From contig JAHHGS010000080.1 in assembly GCA_019359715.1 (NCBI GenBank), positions 1-64,000 on the forward strand: DNA of 64,000 nucleotides, written 5' to 3'. The notes under the pieces are model-generated. The model saw only the letters and a program-made list of their open reading frames with translations, was not told where the DNA came from and made no database searches. The stretch comes from Aphanocapsa sp. GSE-SYN-MK-11-07L (GTDB lineage: Bacteria > Cyanobacteriota > Cyanobacteriia > Thermosynechococcales > Thermosynechococcaceae). Both the position numbers and the translations under genes were made by a program. How positions within the stretch are numbered: the first letter of the stretch is position 1; the number at the start of each line of letters is the position of its first letter. This document shows positions 11,599-35,659 of this stretch, one piece after another.

Positions 11599-13983
11599 CT
11601 ATTTAGCCATCATTTGACTGACGATAGCTTCACCCCAACATTCACGAATGACATTAATCTTAACCTTAATTAACGATAGGTTATCGGAGGTCAAAAGTTC
11701 CAAATCTTCACTTTTTGCTGTTACTCGCCCGATCGCCTGCCAATACCCTGCTAAATGCGTTTGCAAATAGGATTCCCACAAGCTTTGAAATTGTGACTCC
11801 ACCGAAAGGCAAATTCTGGCTCCCCCTTCCCCAAACAAAATCTGATCCCAGCGTTGGCTTGTGTCCGCAATGACCGACAGATGAATCTCCGCTCCCCGAT
11901 CGCCGCTGATACAGGATTCAGCTAGAGCGATCGCCAGCCCCCCTTCGGCGCAGTCGTGGGCAGAATGCACCCAACCCTGCTCGATGCCATGCCGACAAGC
12001 GGCCTGAACTTGTTGTTCTAGAGCTAAATCGACTAGGGGCGGCATCCCTGCCACCGTATTGTGAATCACAGCCAAATATTCTGAGCCGCCCAGCGTAACT
12101 TGCCCTTGGTGTGTTGGATCAAGATTTTCATTGCCAACCGGAATACCCAGCAGATAAATTAAATCGCCGCTTGCCTGCCAGCCTTGCCCACAAATTCGCT
12201 CCAAATCGGGAACTAACCCCACCATCCCCACGACTGGGGTTGGATAAATTGGCTGGGGCTTGCCTGCGGCATCTAAAGTTTCATTGTAGAGAGAAACATT
12301 GCCGCCCGTCACCGGGGTAGCTAAGGCCCGACAGGCATCCGCTAAGCCACGACAGGCTTCGGCTAGCTGCCAGTAGCCAATTGGGTTTTCAGGACTGCCA
12401 AAATTGAGGTTGTCTGTCACGGCTAGGGGTTGCGCTCCGACACAGCTCAGGTTGCGGGCGGCTTCTGCCACGGCTGCTTTGGCCCCTTCGTAGGGATGCA
12501 GGTAGACGTAGCGGGGGTTGCAATCAACGGTGGCGGCCACGCCTGATTCTATTCTATCGGTTTGCTCTGGCTCAGATTTAGCTCCTTCCAGGGGGCGGAG
12601 CCGAATCACGGCTGCATCAGCCCTGCCTGGCAGCAGCACCGTGTTGTTTTGGACTTGGTGGTCATACTGACGGTAAATCCAGCTTTTCGAGGCGATCGTT
12701 GGCGAGGCTAAGAGCTGACAAAGCACCTGATTCCAAGAGATCAGGTTGCCCGCTAGGTCAATGCCAGCCTGGCTGCAAGCGGGCAGCAACTGGCTCGTCC
12801 ATGCCCAAGCCTGCTGAGCATAATCTGGCGGTGATTCTGGCAGGTCACGGTAATAAATCGGCGTATTTTCAGCCAGGGCGAGGGCGGGAATTTCGGCGGC
12901 AATTTTCCCCTGCCAGCGAATTCTAACCACGGGTTCAGCCAACACCGTGCCAGCCACAACAGCATGCAGCCCCCAACGCTCAAAAATCTCAATTAATTCC
13001 TGCTCCCGCCCTTTGTGAGCAACAAACAGCATCCGCTCTTGCGACTCTGAAAGTAAATACTCGTAGGGCACCATGCCGGTTTCGCGGACCGGGATTAAAT
13101 CGAGGTCGAGGTCAATCCCGACCCCGCCTTTGGCAGCCATTTCTGAGGTAGAGCAAGTGATGCCAGCCGCTCCCATGTCTTGGGCGGCCACGACAGCCCC
13201 AGTTTTAAAGGCTTCTAGGCAGGCTTCAATCAAAGATTTTTCCAGAAACGGATCACCGACTTGGACGGCGGGGCGATCGCTAACCGACTCGGCGCTCAAC
13301 TCAGCACTGGCAAAGCTGGCTCCCTTCATCCCATCCCGCCCGGTGGTAGAACCGACATACAAAACCGGATTGCCAATCCCGGCCGCCCCCGATTTAACAA
13401 TGTCTGGGGTTTCCATTAATCCCAGCGCCATCGCATTCACTAGCGGGTTGCCGTTGTAGGCAGGGTCAAAGTAAACCTCACCCCCAACCGTCGGCACTCC
13501 AACTGCATTCCCGTAGTGGCTGATTCCAGCCACTACGCCGCTAAACAGGCGACGGGTGCGAACATCAGCTAAAGAGCCAAACCGGAGTGAGTTGAGAATG
13601 GCGATCGGGCGGGCCCCCATCGTGAAAATATCCCGCAGGATGCCGCCGACACCGGTGGCTGCGCCCTGAAATGGCTCGACAGCCGAGGGATGGTTGTGGG
13701 ATTCAATCTTAAAGGCTAGGCGCAGCCCATTGCCGAGATCCACCACGCCCGCATTTTCGCCTGGCCCAACCAAGACGCGATCGCCCTCGGTTGGAAATTG
13801 CTTCAGCAACGGGCGGGAGTTTTTATAGCAGCAGTGCTCTGACCACATCACCCCAAACATGCCCAGTTCGGCTCGATTGGGGTGCCTTCCCAGCCGATGG
13901 ACAATTTCTGCGTATTCCTCTGGCTTCAGCCCCTCTGAGGCGAGATCTTCTAGAGAAAACGGGCCGGTGGCGATCGCAGTCAT
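11599..13983 (-). CDS. purL: phosphoribosylformylglycinamidine synthase subunit PurL
   Basis: ATPase/synthetase subunit of FGAM synthase (fourth step of purine synthesis), working with PurS and PurQ, which are not in the window. The protein is about 794 residues and of the small PurL type: it contains [15 protein letters not shown] near the N-terminus, [10 protein letters not shown], an ATP-binding [14 protein letters not shown], and a second AIRS-like half with [10 protein letters not shown] and HDCAEGGLA. No glutaminase domain is fused. ATG at 13983 (MTAIATGPF) is preferred to the in-frame ATG at 14013. Upstream of purF, 55 bases apart. Confidence 0.96.
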
Positions 13984-22361: not shown

Positions 22362-22922
22362 ATGATGAAGCACGTTCAACCTTGGTTAAAAACAGCGATC
22401 GCAGCCGGAGCATTCCTTGGCCTGACACCGTTGCCTGCTCTGGCCGCCTTAGCGCCCAATTTAGAAGGGCTGCCACCGCAAGTGATCGCCGCTTGGCAGG
22501 CTCCAACAACGACACCAGTCGTTGAAAGTGAAGTGCCTTCTCAACTCGGCTTGACGATTCCGAGTCTGTGGTGGGTGGCAGAGCAGTTTGGCGGCGGTCT
22601 GATCGATCGCTGGCTGGCGCGTCCGAGTGCCAACCAAGGGGCAGGACGAGTTGATTTACGAGTCCGCCCAGAGATTTGGAATCGCTACAGCTATCTGGAT
22701 CGCTATGCCTTCGTCAACCACATGGGTTTGGTGTCAAGCGATTTTGGCTACAACATGCTGGTGTTTGATACTCGGCAGAACGTTGTCGCTGCCTATACCT
22801 GCAATTTTGATGAGTCTGGAGTAAATAACGCTAACCCTGGCTTAGCAGGAACCGTTGGCGTTAAGATTTTTCCCCGCTGCCAAGTCTGGCTGAATCCCAA
22901 TTTTTCGACTCGCCCTTTTTAA
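22362..22922 (+). CDS. exported protein of unknown function, 186 aa
   Basis: The N-terminus has a Sec signal peptide (basic KHVQPWLK, hydrophobic core, cleavage likely after ALA near residue 29). The mature part contains two Trp-rich stretches (SLWWVAEQFGG) and a C-terminal domain with YSYLDRYAFVNHMG, FGYNMLVFDTR and VAAYTCNF. No catalytic motif is recognised. The stop TAA overlaps the stop of the convergent TetR gene within TTAA at 22919-22922. It follows the EVE gene by 7 bases. Confidence 0.75.
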   Translation: MMKHVQPWLKTAIAAGAFLGLTPLPALAALAPNLEGLPPQVIAAWQAPTTTPVVESEVPSQLGLTIPSLWWVAEQFGGGLIDRWLARPSANQGAGRVDLRVRPEIWNRYSYLDRYAFVNHMGLVSSDFGYNMLVFDTRQNVVAAYTCNFDESGVNNANPGLAGTVGVKIFPRCQVWLNPNFSTRPF

Positions 22923-23608
22923 GCTGGTCGCTTCACCCCGGCCAAAATAAACGCGATCGCGGCTTGGGTATGCTGCTCAACTCGCTCTGGACTAAGCCGA
23001 TCAACGTCGGGGGTCAGATGTTGCCAATTTTTATGCACAGTGAAATAGAACAGGCAAACGCTCAAGATATGAGTCAAGGCTAACCAGGGGTCGAGGGGAC
23101 GGAAACAGCCCTCTGCCATGCCTCGCTCTAATACTTTCAGCAAATGTTCGTGCAGGCTAATTACATTGCAGTCTTTGAAATACCTGCCTTGGTTTTGGCT
23201 GGCTTCTTGAATCCAGAGCATTTGCCGCTGCGGGTTTTGGGCTTCGTTGGCGATCGCAATCCGAATAATCTCCTGGAGCGCTGCCTCTGGGGACAAACTT
23301 TCAAAGTTGAGCTGTCCGAGGGTTGCTTGTAGTTCTGCAATCGGACGCTGTAATACCGCCTTGTACAGGCTTTCTTTGTTCTCAAAATAGTAGTGCAGCG
23401 AGGCGGTTGTCACATTGGCCAGATTGGCGATCGCGCTCATCCGCGCTCCATTTAAACCATGCCGGGAAAACTCCTGTTCTGCTGCATCTAAAATTTGCTG
23501 CTGGGTGGCTTCCGCATCCCGGCTTGGGCGGGAAGATTTCGTTGCTCGTTTACCAGGTCGCCCCACAGGATATTCAGACCTCAACTGCTTTTCTATCTTA
23601 CTAATCAA
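22919..23608 (-). CDS. TetR/AcrR family transcriptional regulator
   Basis: The N-terminal DNA-binding domain (about 35-80) shows QQILDAAEQEFSRHGLNGARMSAIANLANVT followed by LHYYFENKESLYKAVL, the TetR helix-turn-helix signature split here into two quotes of one domain; the C-terminal 140 residues form a helical ligand/dimer domain. It is transcribed away from the Rieske oxygenase gene 98 bases off, with a 22-bp palindrome between them, so it most likely represses that gene and itself. TTG at 23608 is taken as start; GTG at 23566 is an alternative. A half copy of the operator lies over the TTG start. Confidence 0.88.
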   Translation of the reverse strand: MISKIEKQLRSEYPVGRPGKRATKSSRPSRDAEATQQQILDAAEQEFSRHGLNGARMSAIANLANVTTASLHYYFENKESLYKAVLQRPIAELQATLGQLNFESLSPEAALQEIIRIAIANEAQNPQRQMLWIQEASQNQGRYFKDCNVISLHEHLLKVLERGMAEGCFRPLDPWLALTHILSVCLFYFTVHKNWQHLTPDVDRLSPERVEQHTQAAIAFILAGVKRPA

Positions 23609-23617
23609 TCAGCTCGC
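23597..23617. promoter_or_regulatory. possible second TetR site over the regulator's start codon
   Basis: CTTACTAAT at 23597-23605 is identical to the left arm of the palindrome at 23671-23692; the expected right arm is only partly kept (ATCAG at 23608-23612). The site covers the start codon of the regulator gene, a position suited to autoregulation. Binding is inference. Confidence 0.4.
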
Positions 23618-23670
23618 TTAAATAGATCAGTTACAAGGCTAGAATTGACCCACTCGTATACTATTGCTAT

Positions 23671-23692
23671 ACTTACTAATAAATTAGTAAGT
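23671..23692. promoter_or_regulatory. palindromic operator between tetR-type gene and Rieske gene
   Basis: Perfect 10-bp arms ACTTACTAAT and ATTAGTAAGT around a central AA. It sits 14 bases before the Rieske ATG (23707) and just downstream of TATACT/TATACTTAC-like promoter text (23658-23672). Size and symmetry fit a TetR-dimer site, and the position would block transcription or initiation of the oxygenase gene. Confidence 0.72.
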
Positions 23693-23706
23693 TAATTTTA
23701 CAACTC

Positions 23707-24720
23707 ATGCAGCAGTTACAAGGCGCACCTTGGCTTTTAGCCCATCGTTCGATGCTGAAGACCAATCAGCCGCAGAAAGTCTCTTTGTTCGGGCATGATT
23801 ACGTGATCTGGCAAGACAGCCAAGCCGAGATTGTTGCCTTGCCGAATGCCTGTCCGCATATGGGGGCCATGCTGTCTGAAGGGTGGTGTGTTCAGCAGTC
23901 AGACGGCAGCAGCGCGATCGCCTGTCCCTTTCACGCCTTGGAGTTTGATTGGTCTGGCTGTACGATGCTACCTGGCTCCGGTAAGCGAACTCAGCCCGTG
24001 CTAAAACCGTTAGAGCTAGAGATTCAAGGCGACTTGATTTGGACTTATGGGGGCTATGAACCCAAAATCCCGATTCCAGCTCTCATGAGCAAGATTGCGG
24101 ATGGGTATGAATTTGTTGGCGTGACGGGCGATCGCAGCATCCCGACCGATTTACTGACCTTGCTGCTGAACATGCACGATTACAACCATCAAAATGGCAC
24201 CCATCGGCAGTTGTTTGAAATTGAACAAGTGGAAGTGACCCGGTTTATCGATCAAGGCTTGCACTCCCACGCTTACTTAGTGCAGAGCCGTAAACAGCCG
24301 ACTTGGCGCGATCTGCTGAAAAATCCAGGATTGCTGGCTATGCCTAGGATCTTAAAAGCGCACCTAGAAAACTTTTTTCCATTTATGGGCATGGTGCATG
24401 GCGAAAGTCCGATCCTTGACCTGAAGGAATGCCATTTTTACCGCCCAGAGTCCGAGCAGCAGTCACGGGTCTTCGTGCTTGTGTACATCAAAGCTCACTC
24501 AGCGATCGCCCATGTGATCAAGCGCAATTTATTAAAACTGATTAATGTTGTGATTGAGCAGGACGCTGATATTTTGGGCAAGCTCTACCCCAACACTCCT
24601 CAGCAAATTAAACTCAACAACGAAGTCGGCATCGATTGGGTACGGCGCAACTATCAGAGCTTTCCAGCCGCGTTGGCAGAGCCTCCCCAAAGGGGAATCG
24701 CCCCCAATCTTTCTCGGTAG
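23707..24720 (+). CDS. Rieske [2Fe-2S] non-haem iron oxygenase, alpha-subunit type
   Basis: The Rieske domain (about 1-110) binds its cluster with C49-x-H51 and C73-x2-H76. The catalytic domain carries the mononuclear iron motif D158-x2-H161-x4-H166 (HDYNHQNGTH). At 337 residues it resembles the single-component-oxygenase subunits of the VanA/KshA kind rather than the longer chlorophyllide-a or pheophorbide-a oxygenases, and there is no C-terminal membrane anchor. It needs a separate reductase, none of which is nearby. Substrate unknown; hydroxylation, demethylation or ring cleavage are all possible. A divergent TetR regulator and operator suggest induction by the substrate or a related compound. 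Confidence 0.88.
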   Translation: MQQLQGAPWLLAHRSMLKTNQPQKVSLFGHDYVIWQDSQAEIVALPNACPHMGAMLSEGWCVQQSDGSSAIACPFHALEFDWSGCTMLPGSGKRTQPVLKPLELEIQGDLIWTYGGYEPKIPIPALMSKIADGYEFVGVTGDRSIPTDLLTLLLNMHDYNHQNGTHRQLFEIEQVEVTRFIDQGLHSHAYLVQSRKQPTWRDLLKNPGLLAMPRILKAHLENFFPFMGMVHGESPILDLKECHFYRPESEQQSRVFVLVYIKAHSAIAHVIKRNLLKLINVVIEQDADILGKLYPNTPQQIKLNNEVGIDWVRRNYQSFPAALAEPPQRGIAPNLSR

Positions 24721-24906: not shown

Positions 24907-25863
24907 ATGAAAATTTCCCGTGCAATCCTTGGTTGTCTGGTGGTTCTCACCGCTTTAGCTCCTCAGTTGGCGGTCGTAGCTGAAGATATACCTCATCAGT
25001 TAATCGCTAAAGCCCAAGCGCTAGTGCTCAACCAGCCTTTTAGCCGGACGCGATCGTTTTCAGAGGGATTAGCAGCCGTCCAGCTCAACGGCAAGTGGGG
25101 CTACATCGATAAAACGGGCAAATTAGTGATTCCCATCCAGTTTGACGATGCATTGGCTTTTTCCGAGGGACTGGCAGAAGTTGAACTGAATGGCAAATGG
25201 GGCTATATCGATAAAACCGGCAAACTGGCGATCGCGGCTGAATTCGTCAATGCTCTCCCTTTTTCAGAAGGACTGGCCGCTGTCAGAGTCGGCAATTTGT
25301 GGGGCTACATTGATAAAACCGGCAAACAGGTAATTCCAGCCCAGTTTGAAGATGCCTTTGAGTTTGCACAGGGCTTAGCCGGAATCAGAGTCGATCGCAA
25401 AACGGGCTTTATTAACCCCCAAGGCAAGCTGGTGATTCCCCCGCAATTTGACGGCGCTTCGCCCTTTTCAGAAGGGCTGGCGCGGGTGCGAACCGGCAAC
25501 AACTGGGGCTTTATTAATTTAACAGGGGAAAAAGTAATTCAACTAGAAGCCGATTTAGTCGCCCGGTTTTCAGAAGGCTTAGCCGCCATTTTTATTGACG
25601 ACAAAGCTGGCTATATCGACAAAACGGGCAAGGTGGTGATTAAACCCCAATTCGATGATGTTCTGCCCTTTCAAGAAGGTTTAGCCGCCGTCAAAATTGG
25701 TGAGCAGTGGGGCTACATCGACAAAACGGGCAAGGTGGTGATTCCAGTTAAATTTGATCGCGCCATCTCCTTCTCGGATGGACTCGCCTTTGCCCAGATT
25801 GCCGACAAGCGCGGCTATATCAATCAAACCGGCAATTTTGCGATTTCTGTTCCCCCAGGCTGA
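24907..25863 (+). CDS. exported WG-repeat protein
   Basis: A signal peptide (KISRAILGCLVVLTALAPQ) leads into eight repeats of about 33 residues, each reading roughly F-x-EGLA-V...WGYIDKTGK-VI-PQF. Repeats four, six and eight have lost the Trp of WG (TGF, AGY, RGY). WG repeats form beta-rich solenoids with unknown ligands, often at the cell surface. The whole mature protein of 318 residues is repeat. Upstream is a 186-base gap with no obvious regulatory site. The stop lies 2 bases from the end of the convergent mannosidase gene. Confidence 0.9.
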   Translation: MKISRAILGCLVVLTALAPQLAVVAEDIPHQLIAKAQALVLNQPFSRTRSFSEGLAAVQLNGKWGYIDKTGKLVIPIQFDDALAFSEGLAEVELNGKWGYIDKTGKLAIAAEFVNALPFSEGLAAVRVGNLWGYIDKTGKQVIPAQFEDAFEFAQGLAGIRVDRKTGFINPQGKLVIPPQFDGASPFSEGLARVRTGNNWGFINLTGEKVIQLEADLVARFSEGLAAIFIDDKAGYIDKTGKVVIKPQFDDVLPFQEGLAAVKIGEQWGYIDKTGKVVIPVKFDRAISFSDGLAFAQIADKRGYINQTGNFAISVPPG

Positions 25864-35634: not shown

Positions 35635-35659
35635 AGCAGTTTTTAAGGTAAAAACTGCT
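35635..35659 (+). promoter_or_regulatory. 10-bp hairpin in front of the 276-aa gene
   Basis: AGCAGTTTTT and AAAAACTGCT are perfect arms around AAGGT, ending 22 bases before the GTG start at 35682. It may be a leader structure or the terminator of an upstream non-coding transcript; a T-run is absent after the stem. Confidence 0.45.

What the first reader, a model, noticed from the sequence alone, without database searches (positions are those of the whole stretch)
23597..23720. TetR / Rieske oxygenase divergent switch with palindromic operator
A 22-bp site with perfect 10-bp arms (ACTTACTAAT / ATTAGTAAGT) sits 14 bases before a Rieske oxygenase ATG, and an identical half-arm covers the start codon of the divergent TetR-type gene. 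Together they suggest a repressor controlling both genes. Neither gene's ligand is known, and cyanobacterial Rieske oxygenases are few with known substrates, so this is the best-framed inducible system of the window.
Basis: partly seen in the sequence, partly recalled or inferred. Interest (0 to 1): 0.55.

Follow-up and report, generated by a model that had tools for sequence, protein, structure and literature searches.

The report
Dedicated repressor switch for Rieske oxygenase
A cyanobacterial two-gene switch in which a TetR-type repressor very probably shuts off one neighbouring oxygenase gene through a DNA palindrome that is kept almost unchanged in distant relatives; the chemical that opens the switch is unknown, but related switches hint at a response to toxic or signalling compounds.

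Summary
The 22-bp palindrome (23671-23692) is real, single-copy in its genome, and lies 14 bases before the Rieske ATG. Conservation shows it matters. In 26 of 26 close TetR/Rieske pairs (window included) it matches at 18-20 of 20 arm positions, overlaps a -10-like hexamer, and TTGAC lies 17 bp before that hexamer. In 388 cyanobacterial genomes the motif (one mismatch allowed) occurs in 15, once each; 13 of these also hold this TetR. That fits a dedicated repressor with one target promoter. In genome G275 the TetR gene lies elsewhere and the operator stayed with the Rieske gene.

The second half of the claim fails: the half-arm matches 9 of 10 bases, is missing in the 25 relatives, and lies 30 bases upstream of the conserved GTG start (23566). 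Control of the TetR gene is not shown.

Ligand and substrate are unknown. More distant relatives of this TetR use related operators beside Rieske + CYP120-like P450 genes and beside photosystem II D1 genes with a rebuilt QB loop. Sensing of hydrophobic toxicants or apocarotenoid-like compounds is plausible, unproven. Six literature searches found no paper on the pair. New member of a known kind.

The parts
23671..23692 (.). Operator: perfect palindrome ACTTACTAAT-AA-ATTAGTAAGT
   Evidence: conserved at 18-20 of 20 arm positions in 26 of 26 close pairs; single copy in the genome
23645..23650 (+). -35 element TTGACC of the Rieske promoter (predicted)
   Evidence: TTGAC at this spacing in 26 of 26 close pairs
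23668..23673 (+). -10 element TATACT of the Rieske promoter (predicted); its last three bases are the first three of the operator
   Evidence: 17-bp spacer in 26 of 26; the hexamer varies, commonest TAAACT in 11 of 26
23707..24720 (+). Rieske oxygenase gene, 337 aa
   Evidence: PF00355 55.9 bits; Rieske and iron-site residues invariant in 25 sequences; fold matches Rieske oxygenases
22919..23566 (-). TetR-type regulator gene, 215 aa from the likely GTG start
   Evidence: PF00440 51 bits; GTG conserved in 26 of 26; model pLDDT 90.5
23597..23605 (+).
   Evidence: In 1 of 26 regions

Best explanation
The TetR protein binds, as a dimer, the 22-bp palindrome at 23671-23692. The palindrome covers the end of the -10 box and the inferred transcription start of the Rieske gene, so bound repressor keeps RNA polymerase off. 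A small, probably hydrophobic molecule, most simply the Rieske substrate or a relative of it, binds the C-terminal domain, releases the protein from DNA and switches the oxygenase on. The switch is dedicated: one operator, one target promoter, no wider regulon. Shown here: conservation of pair, operator and promoter geometry; single copy; operator kept where the regulator gene lies elsewhere. Inferred: binding, repression rather than activation, induction, the nature of the inducer.
For: Pair: 53 of 80 loci found with the TetR protein alone carry a divergent Rieske gene within 800 bp. Operator: 26 of 26 close pairs (TetR at least 70% identical) match 18-20 of 20 arm positions; the best of 5,200 shuffles is 15. 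Promoter: TTGAC 17 bp before a -10-like hexamer that overlaps the operator, 26 of 26. Specificity: 15 of 388 genomes carry the motif at up to 1 mismatch, one copy each, 13 of them with this TetR (overlap P about 2e-20 if genomes were independent); all 14 uncut close TetRs of that sample have the Rieske gene next door. Elsewhere: in G275 a Rieske gene keeps the operator (ACTAACTAAACAGTTAGTTAGT) and promoter spacing, while the only TetR found at E <= 1e-40 is on another contig with no operator beside it. In L143 the TetR and a Rieske reading interrupted by a frame change lie some 680 bp apart and the operator is at the Rieske end. No other gene family recurs in more than 4 of 26 close loci.
Against: No binding, transcript or start-site data. 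27 of the 80 TetR loci have no divergent Rieske gene by my criterion: L067 and L077 (56-58% identity), L083 (50%) and 24 more distant or partial TetRs. L067 keeps an operator though its Rieske frame is cut short. Two genomes have the motif without this TetR (L112, L113). The 26 regions are related (L003 and L047 are near-copies), so counts overstate independence. Relatives of this TetR with other partners also have related palindromes (L087, L089, L091, L095, L098, L151, L153-L156), so the operator code is not unique to Rieske genes. Activation is not formally excluded.
Confidence: 0.86

Rival explanations
1. The regulator controls both genes: it binds the palindrome and a second half-site near its own start and so represses itself as well.
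For: The window has a 9-of-10 half-arm in the TetR leader. In 25 of 31 pairs with a more distant TetR a second site lies 51-60 bp from the first.
Against: In close relatives the half-arm is in 1 of 26 regions; here the spacing is 75 bp; the likely TetR start is 30 bases away.
Confidence: 0.25
2. The TetR acts as an activator of the Rieske gene.
For: Some TetR-family proteins activate (recalled).
Against: The operator overlaps the -10 hexamer and the expected start site in 26 of 26, a place usual for repression.
Confidence: 0.06
3. The palindrome is not this regulator's site: it serves another factor or acts as an RNA hairpin in the leader.
For: No binding data; in G275 the Rieske gene with the operator has no TetR beside it.
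Against: Motif and TetR co-occur in 13 of the 15 genomes with the motif; the half-site differs between TetR subgroups in step with the TetR (no formal test made); the site spans the expected transcription start, so only part of it would be in the RNA.
Confidence: 0.06
4. Function of the pair: inducible oxidation of a carotenoid breakdown product or other terpenoid rather than of a foreign toxicant.
For: In 13 loci of a related subgroup a P450 gene follows the Rieske gene; the one compared with solved structures is closest to cyanobacterial P450 120 (L058), an enzyme I recall as a retinoid hydroxylase.
Against: No P450 gene is next to the window pair; no substrate data.
Confidence: 0.25

Closest known systems
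CymR with the p-cumate dioxygenase (cmt) operon of Pseudomonas putida F1
   Same: TetR-type repressor, palindrome with 10-bp arms upstream of an oxygenase operon, effector p-cumate (PMC5224996, passages; that this dioxygenase is a Rieske enzyme is recalled)
   Different: Site is ACAAACAGAC-N6-GTCTGTTTGT and serves long catabolic operons in a proteobacterium; here a single gene, another sequence and a 2-bp centre
KstR and its palindrome in the kstR/fadE34 divergent region of mycobacteria
   Same: TetR repressor; palindrome conserved between species and partly overlapping a -10 region (PMC1995591, passages)
   Different: KstR governs a large regulon; here one target. That KstR controls the Rieske enzyme KshA is recalled; the passages have no mention of Rieske or ksh
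RutR of E. coli
   Same: Closest solved TetR by sequence (1.6e-13) and by fold (top rows, TM 0.76-0.85)
   Different: About 25% identity; equivalog score 61.5 against a cut-off of 368; its ligand uracil must not be transferred
SxtT/GxtA, dicamba monooxygenase and KshA (solved Rieske oxygenases)
   Same: Best fold matches of the model; Rieske motif shared in sequence with KshA and dicamba monooxygenase
   Different: 16-20% identity in the listed SxtT, GxtA, dicamba monooxygenase and KshA rows; substrate not transferable

Membership tests
TetR family regulator | N-terminal TetR helix-turn-helix domain | tested here: met
   PF00440 51.1 bits, cut-off 24
TetR family regulator | All-helical two-domain fold | tested here: met
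   Model pLDDT 90.5 with 11 helices; 478 PDB matches at E <= 0.001, the 50 listed rows being mostly named TetR-type regulators
TetR family regulator | Binds a short palindrome as a dimer and is released by a ligand | not testable with these tools
   A conserved palindrome is present; binding and release need experiment
Rieske non-heme iron oxygenase (alpha subunit) | CxH ... CxxH Rieske cluster motif | tested here: met
   C49, H51, C73, H76 invariant in 25 sequences; PF00355 55.9 bits, cut-off 20.3
Rieske non-heme iron oxygenase (alpha subunit) | Two-histidine, one-carboxylate iron site with a bridging aspartate | tested here: met
   D158, H161, H166 and D286 invariant in 25 sequences; the roles are assigned by motif and position from recalled knowledge, not from a metal-bound structure
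Rieske non-heme iron oxygenase (alpha subunit) | Oxygenase activity with an electron-transfer partner | not testable with these tools
   no assay; partner not sought
RutR equivalog | Curated cut-off of TIGR03613 | tested here: not met
   61.5 of 368 bits
4beta-methylsterol monooxygenase (SdmA) | Curated cut-off of NF052579 | tested here: not met
   32 of 600 bits

The most novel reading that the evidence does not exclude
The window pair belongs to a cyanobacterial branch of TetR regulators that share one operator code (half-site near ACTnAyTAA) and tie the sensing of hydrophobic, perhaps photosystem II-directed, toxicants to countermeasures: oxidative removal (Rieske, CYP120-like P450) and, in relatives, replacement of the target by a D1 protein whose QB pocket has been rebuilt. 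The window's Rieske enzyme would then be an inducible detoxifying hydroxylase for such an allelochemical.
Probability: 0.2. Interest if true: 0.85.

Novelty: new member of a known kind. Interest (0 to 1): 0.5.

Why it matters
It is a compact, self-contained chemical sensor native to cyanobacteria: one repressor, one operator overlapping one promoter, one target. A reporter screen on this promoter would name the inducer and with it the likely substrate of an uncharacterised oxygenase group. The wider TetR branch links related operators to a D1 variant with an altered QB loop, so the inducer found here could explain a set of switches in photosynthetic bacteria.

Tried and rejected
Rejected: control through the half-arm at the TetR start; a wider regulon in the own genome (one site at up to 3 mismatches); a shared gene cluster in the close group (no family besides the pair in more than 4 of 26 loci); transfer of the RutR ligand or the SdmA substrate (cut-offs not met). 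The own genome has a second Rieske gene (contig C1, 56-57% identical) with another TetR beside it and another promoter block; no window-type operator was found there. A plasmid search gave 50 records, all with TetRs under 60% identity. Literature: asked about the pair or TetR/Rieske/CYP120 in cyanobacteria and listed no paper on it; some searches asked about CymR and about psbA. Searches with loose terms listed only the top rows, and the library lacks most subscription journals. PMC4788461 (passages) mentions Rieske only in its reference list. PMC7029182 (passages) mentions a Cyp120 orthologue, not Rieske or a TetR regulator.

Weak or failed: my first start-codon count was out of frame (end) and was redone. 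FAD-oxidoreductase- and GT-linked relatives (L147-L150, L152) show only weak site matches (13-14 of 18; reached by 2 to 14 of 200 shuffles), and L090, L092-L094, L097 none. Most clade B regions were not shuffled. No test of operator/recognition-helix co-variation was made beyond looking.

Full report
The site. The window carries ACTTACTAAT-AA-ATTAGTAAGT at 23671-23692, 14 bases before the ATG of a 337-residue Rieske oxygenase, between that gene and a divergent TetR-type gene. It is the only match at up to three mismatches in the window and in the 5.1-Mb genome. A perfect palindrome of this size turned up in 48 of 20,000 shuffles of the 140-bp gap, so conservation had to decide.

Conservation. 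A scan of species genomes with the TetR protein alone kept 80 loci; 53 carry a divergent Rieske gene within 800 bp. All 26 carry the operator: 11 match 20, 9 match 19 and 6 match 18 of 20 arm positions; shuffled versions of the same regions reach at most 15 in 5,200 trials. All 26 have TTGAC 17 bp before a -10-like hexamer whose last three bases are the first three of the operator. L003 and L047 are near-copies and others are related, so the 26 are not independent.

One regulator, one site. In 388 cyanobacterial genomes the pattern (one mismatch allowed) occurs in 15, once each. Fifteen genomes hold a close TetR (at least 72% identity, one of them only in part, at a contig end); 13 of these are among the 15 with the motif (P about 2e-20 if genomes were independent). 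The other two are G303, whose operator has two mismatches (L137), and G215, where the contig ends inside the gene. Two genomes have the motif without this TetR, beside unrelated ORFs (L112, L113). All 14 uncut cases have the Rieske gene next door.

Related switches. Thirty-one pairs with a TetR of 44-58% identity use a changed site near ACTAACTAA-N4-TTAGTTAGT: 30 reach at least 14 of 18 positions, and 25 have a second such site, 51-60 bp from the first; in the aligned Nostoc-type regions a TTGACA lies between the two. In 13 loci a P450 gene follows the Rieske gene (in three of them the P450 frame is in two pieces); in two more (L067, L077) the Rieske frame is cut short or missing and the P450 remains. 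Two of these P450s were checked against Pfam and one against solved structures, where cyanobacterial P450 120 came first.

Where the regulator moved. In G275 a Rieske gene keeps operator and promoter spacing next to an ArsR-like gene, while the only TetR found at E <= 1e-40 is on another contig with no operator beside it. In L143 TetR and Rieske are some 680 bp apart and the operator is at the Rieske end. TetR loci without a Rieske gene differ: L077 and L083 show no site, L067 keeps one, and TetRs with other partners often have a related palindrome.

What fails. The second half-arm matches 9 of 10 bases, occurs in 1 of 26 regions, and is 30 bases upstream of a GTG (23566) that is conserved in 26 of 26 and closely preceded by an in-frame stop in 12. 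Control of the TetR gene is open.

Proteins. The TetR model (pLDDT 90.5) is closest to RutR at about 25% identity; the RutR cut-off is missed by far. The Rieske model (pLDDT 83.9) is closest to SxtT/GxtA, then dicamba monooxygenase and others, at 12-20% identity in the 50 rows listed. Rieske ligands and D158, H161, H166, D286 are invariant in 25 sequences.

How it works. Best reading: repression by covering the -10 box and start, relieved by a small molecule, probably the substrate or a relative. Parallels are CymR (PMC5224996, passages) and KstR (PMC1995591, passages). The system is new; the principle is not.

Wider branch. A tree of 48 TetRs puts the window's with Rieske-, FAD-oxidoreductase-, glycosyltransferase- and D1-linked ones in one group of 40 (100/99; midpoint root, for drawing only). 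The D1-linked ones stand beside a psbA gene in whose product the QB loop FQYASFN is replaced by GRTNE- or GRMNE-type sequence. In five genomes chosen because they had the pair, 6 of 6 variant-loop D1 copies have this TetR and two operators 50 bp apart; 0 of 11 loci with a standard loop have the TetR in view, and their best operator match is 15 of 20; three copies were cut before the loop. A search of the 388 genomes with one D1-linked TetR gave 24 loci in 22 genomes; 18 have D1, and 17 of 17 readable loops are the variant, one being cut. That query favours D1-linked relatives. A 2025 survey calls the S264/F265 region structurally well conserved across D1 groups (PMC12096807, passages). This is outside the finding but suggests what such regulators may sense.

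Noticed in passing
L206-L209, L211-L217, L219-L221, L227-L229; also L186-L191: TetRs about 41-47% identical to the window's are divergent from psbA genes whose D1 lacks the usual QB loop (FQYASFN, with S264/F265) and has GRTNE/GRMNE-type sequence instead, with two related palindromes mostly 50 bp apart. 17 of 17 readable loops at the 24 TetR loci are the variant. Possibly an inducible photosystem II that tolerates QB-site inhibitors; deserves its own study.
   Followed up: partly
L175:1716-3561 (own genome, contig C1): Paralogous pair: another TetR, with a C-terminal zinc-ribbon-like stretch, divergent from a second Rieske gene (56-57% identical), with its own conserved promoter block.
   Followed up: partly
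L230:2295-6243 (G169): A second-type Rieske gene (56% identical) lies about 1 kb from a TetR/variant-D1 pair.
   Followed up: no
L067 and L077 (Nostoc): TetR/Rieske/P450 modules in which the Rieske frame is cut short (L067) or missing (L077) while the P450 remains.
   Followed up: no
23628-23639 and 23713-23724: Exact 12-bp direct repeat CAGTTACAAGGC, one copy in the gap and one in the first Rieske codons.
   Followed up: no
13512-13537 and 35635-35659: The only other perfect palindromes with 10-bp arms and a centre of at most 6 bases in the window.
   Followed up: no
24907-25863: Protein with eight WG-repeat matches (Pfam 2.3e-100) just downstream of the Rieske gene; it has no counterpart in the other 25 close loci.
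   Followed up: no
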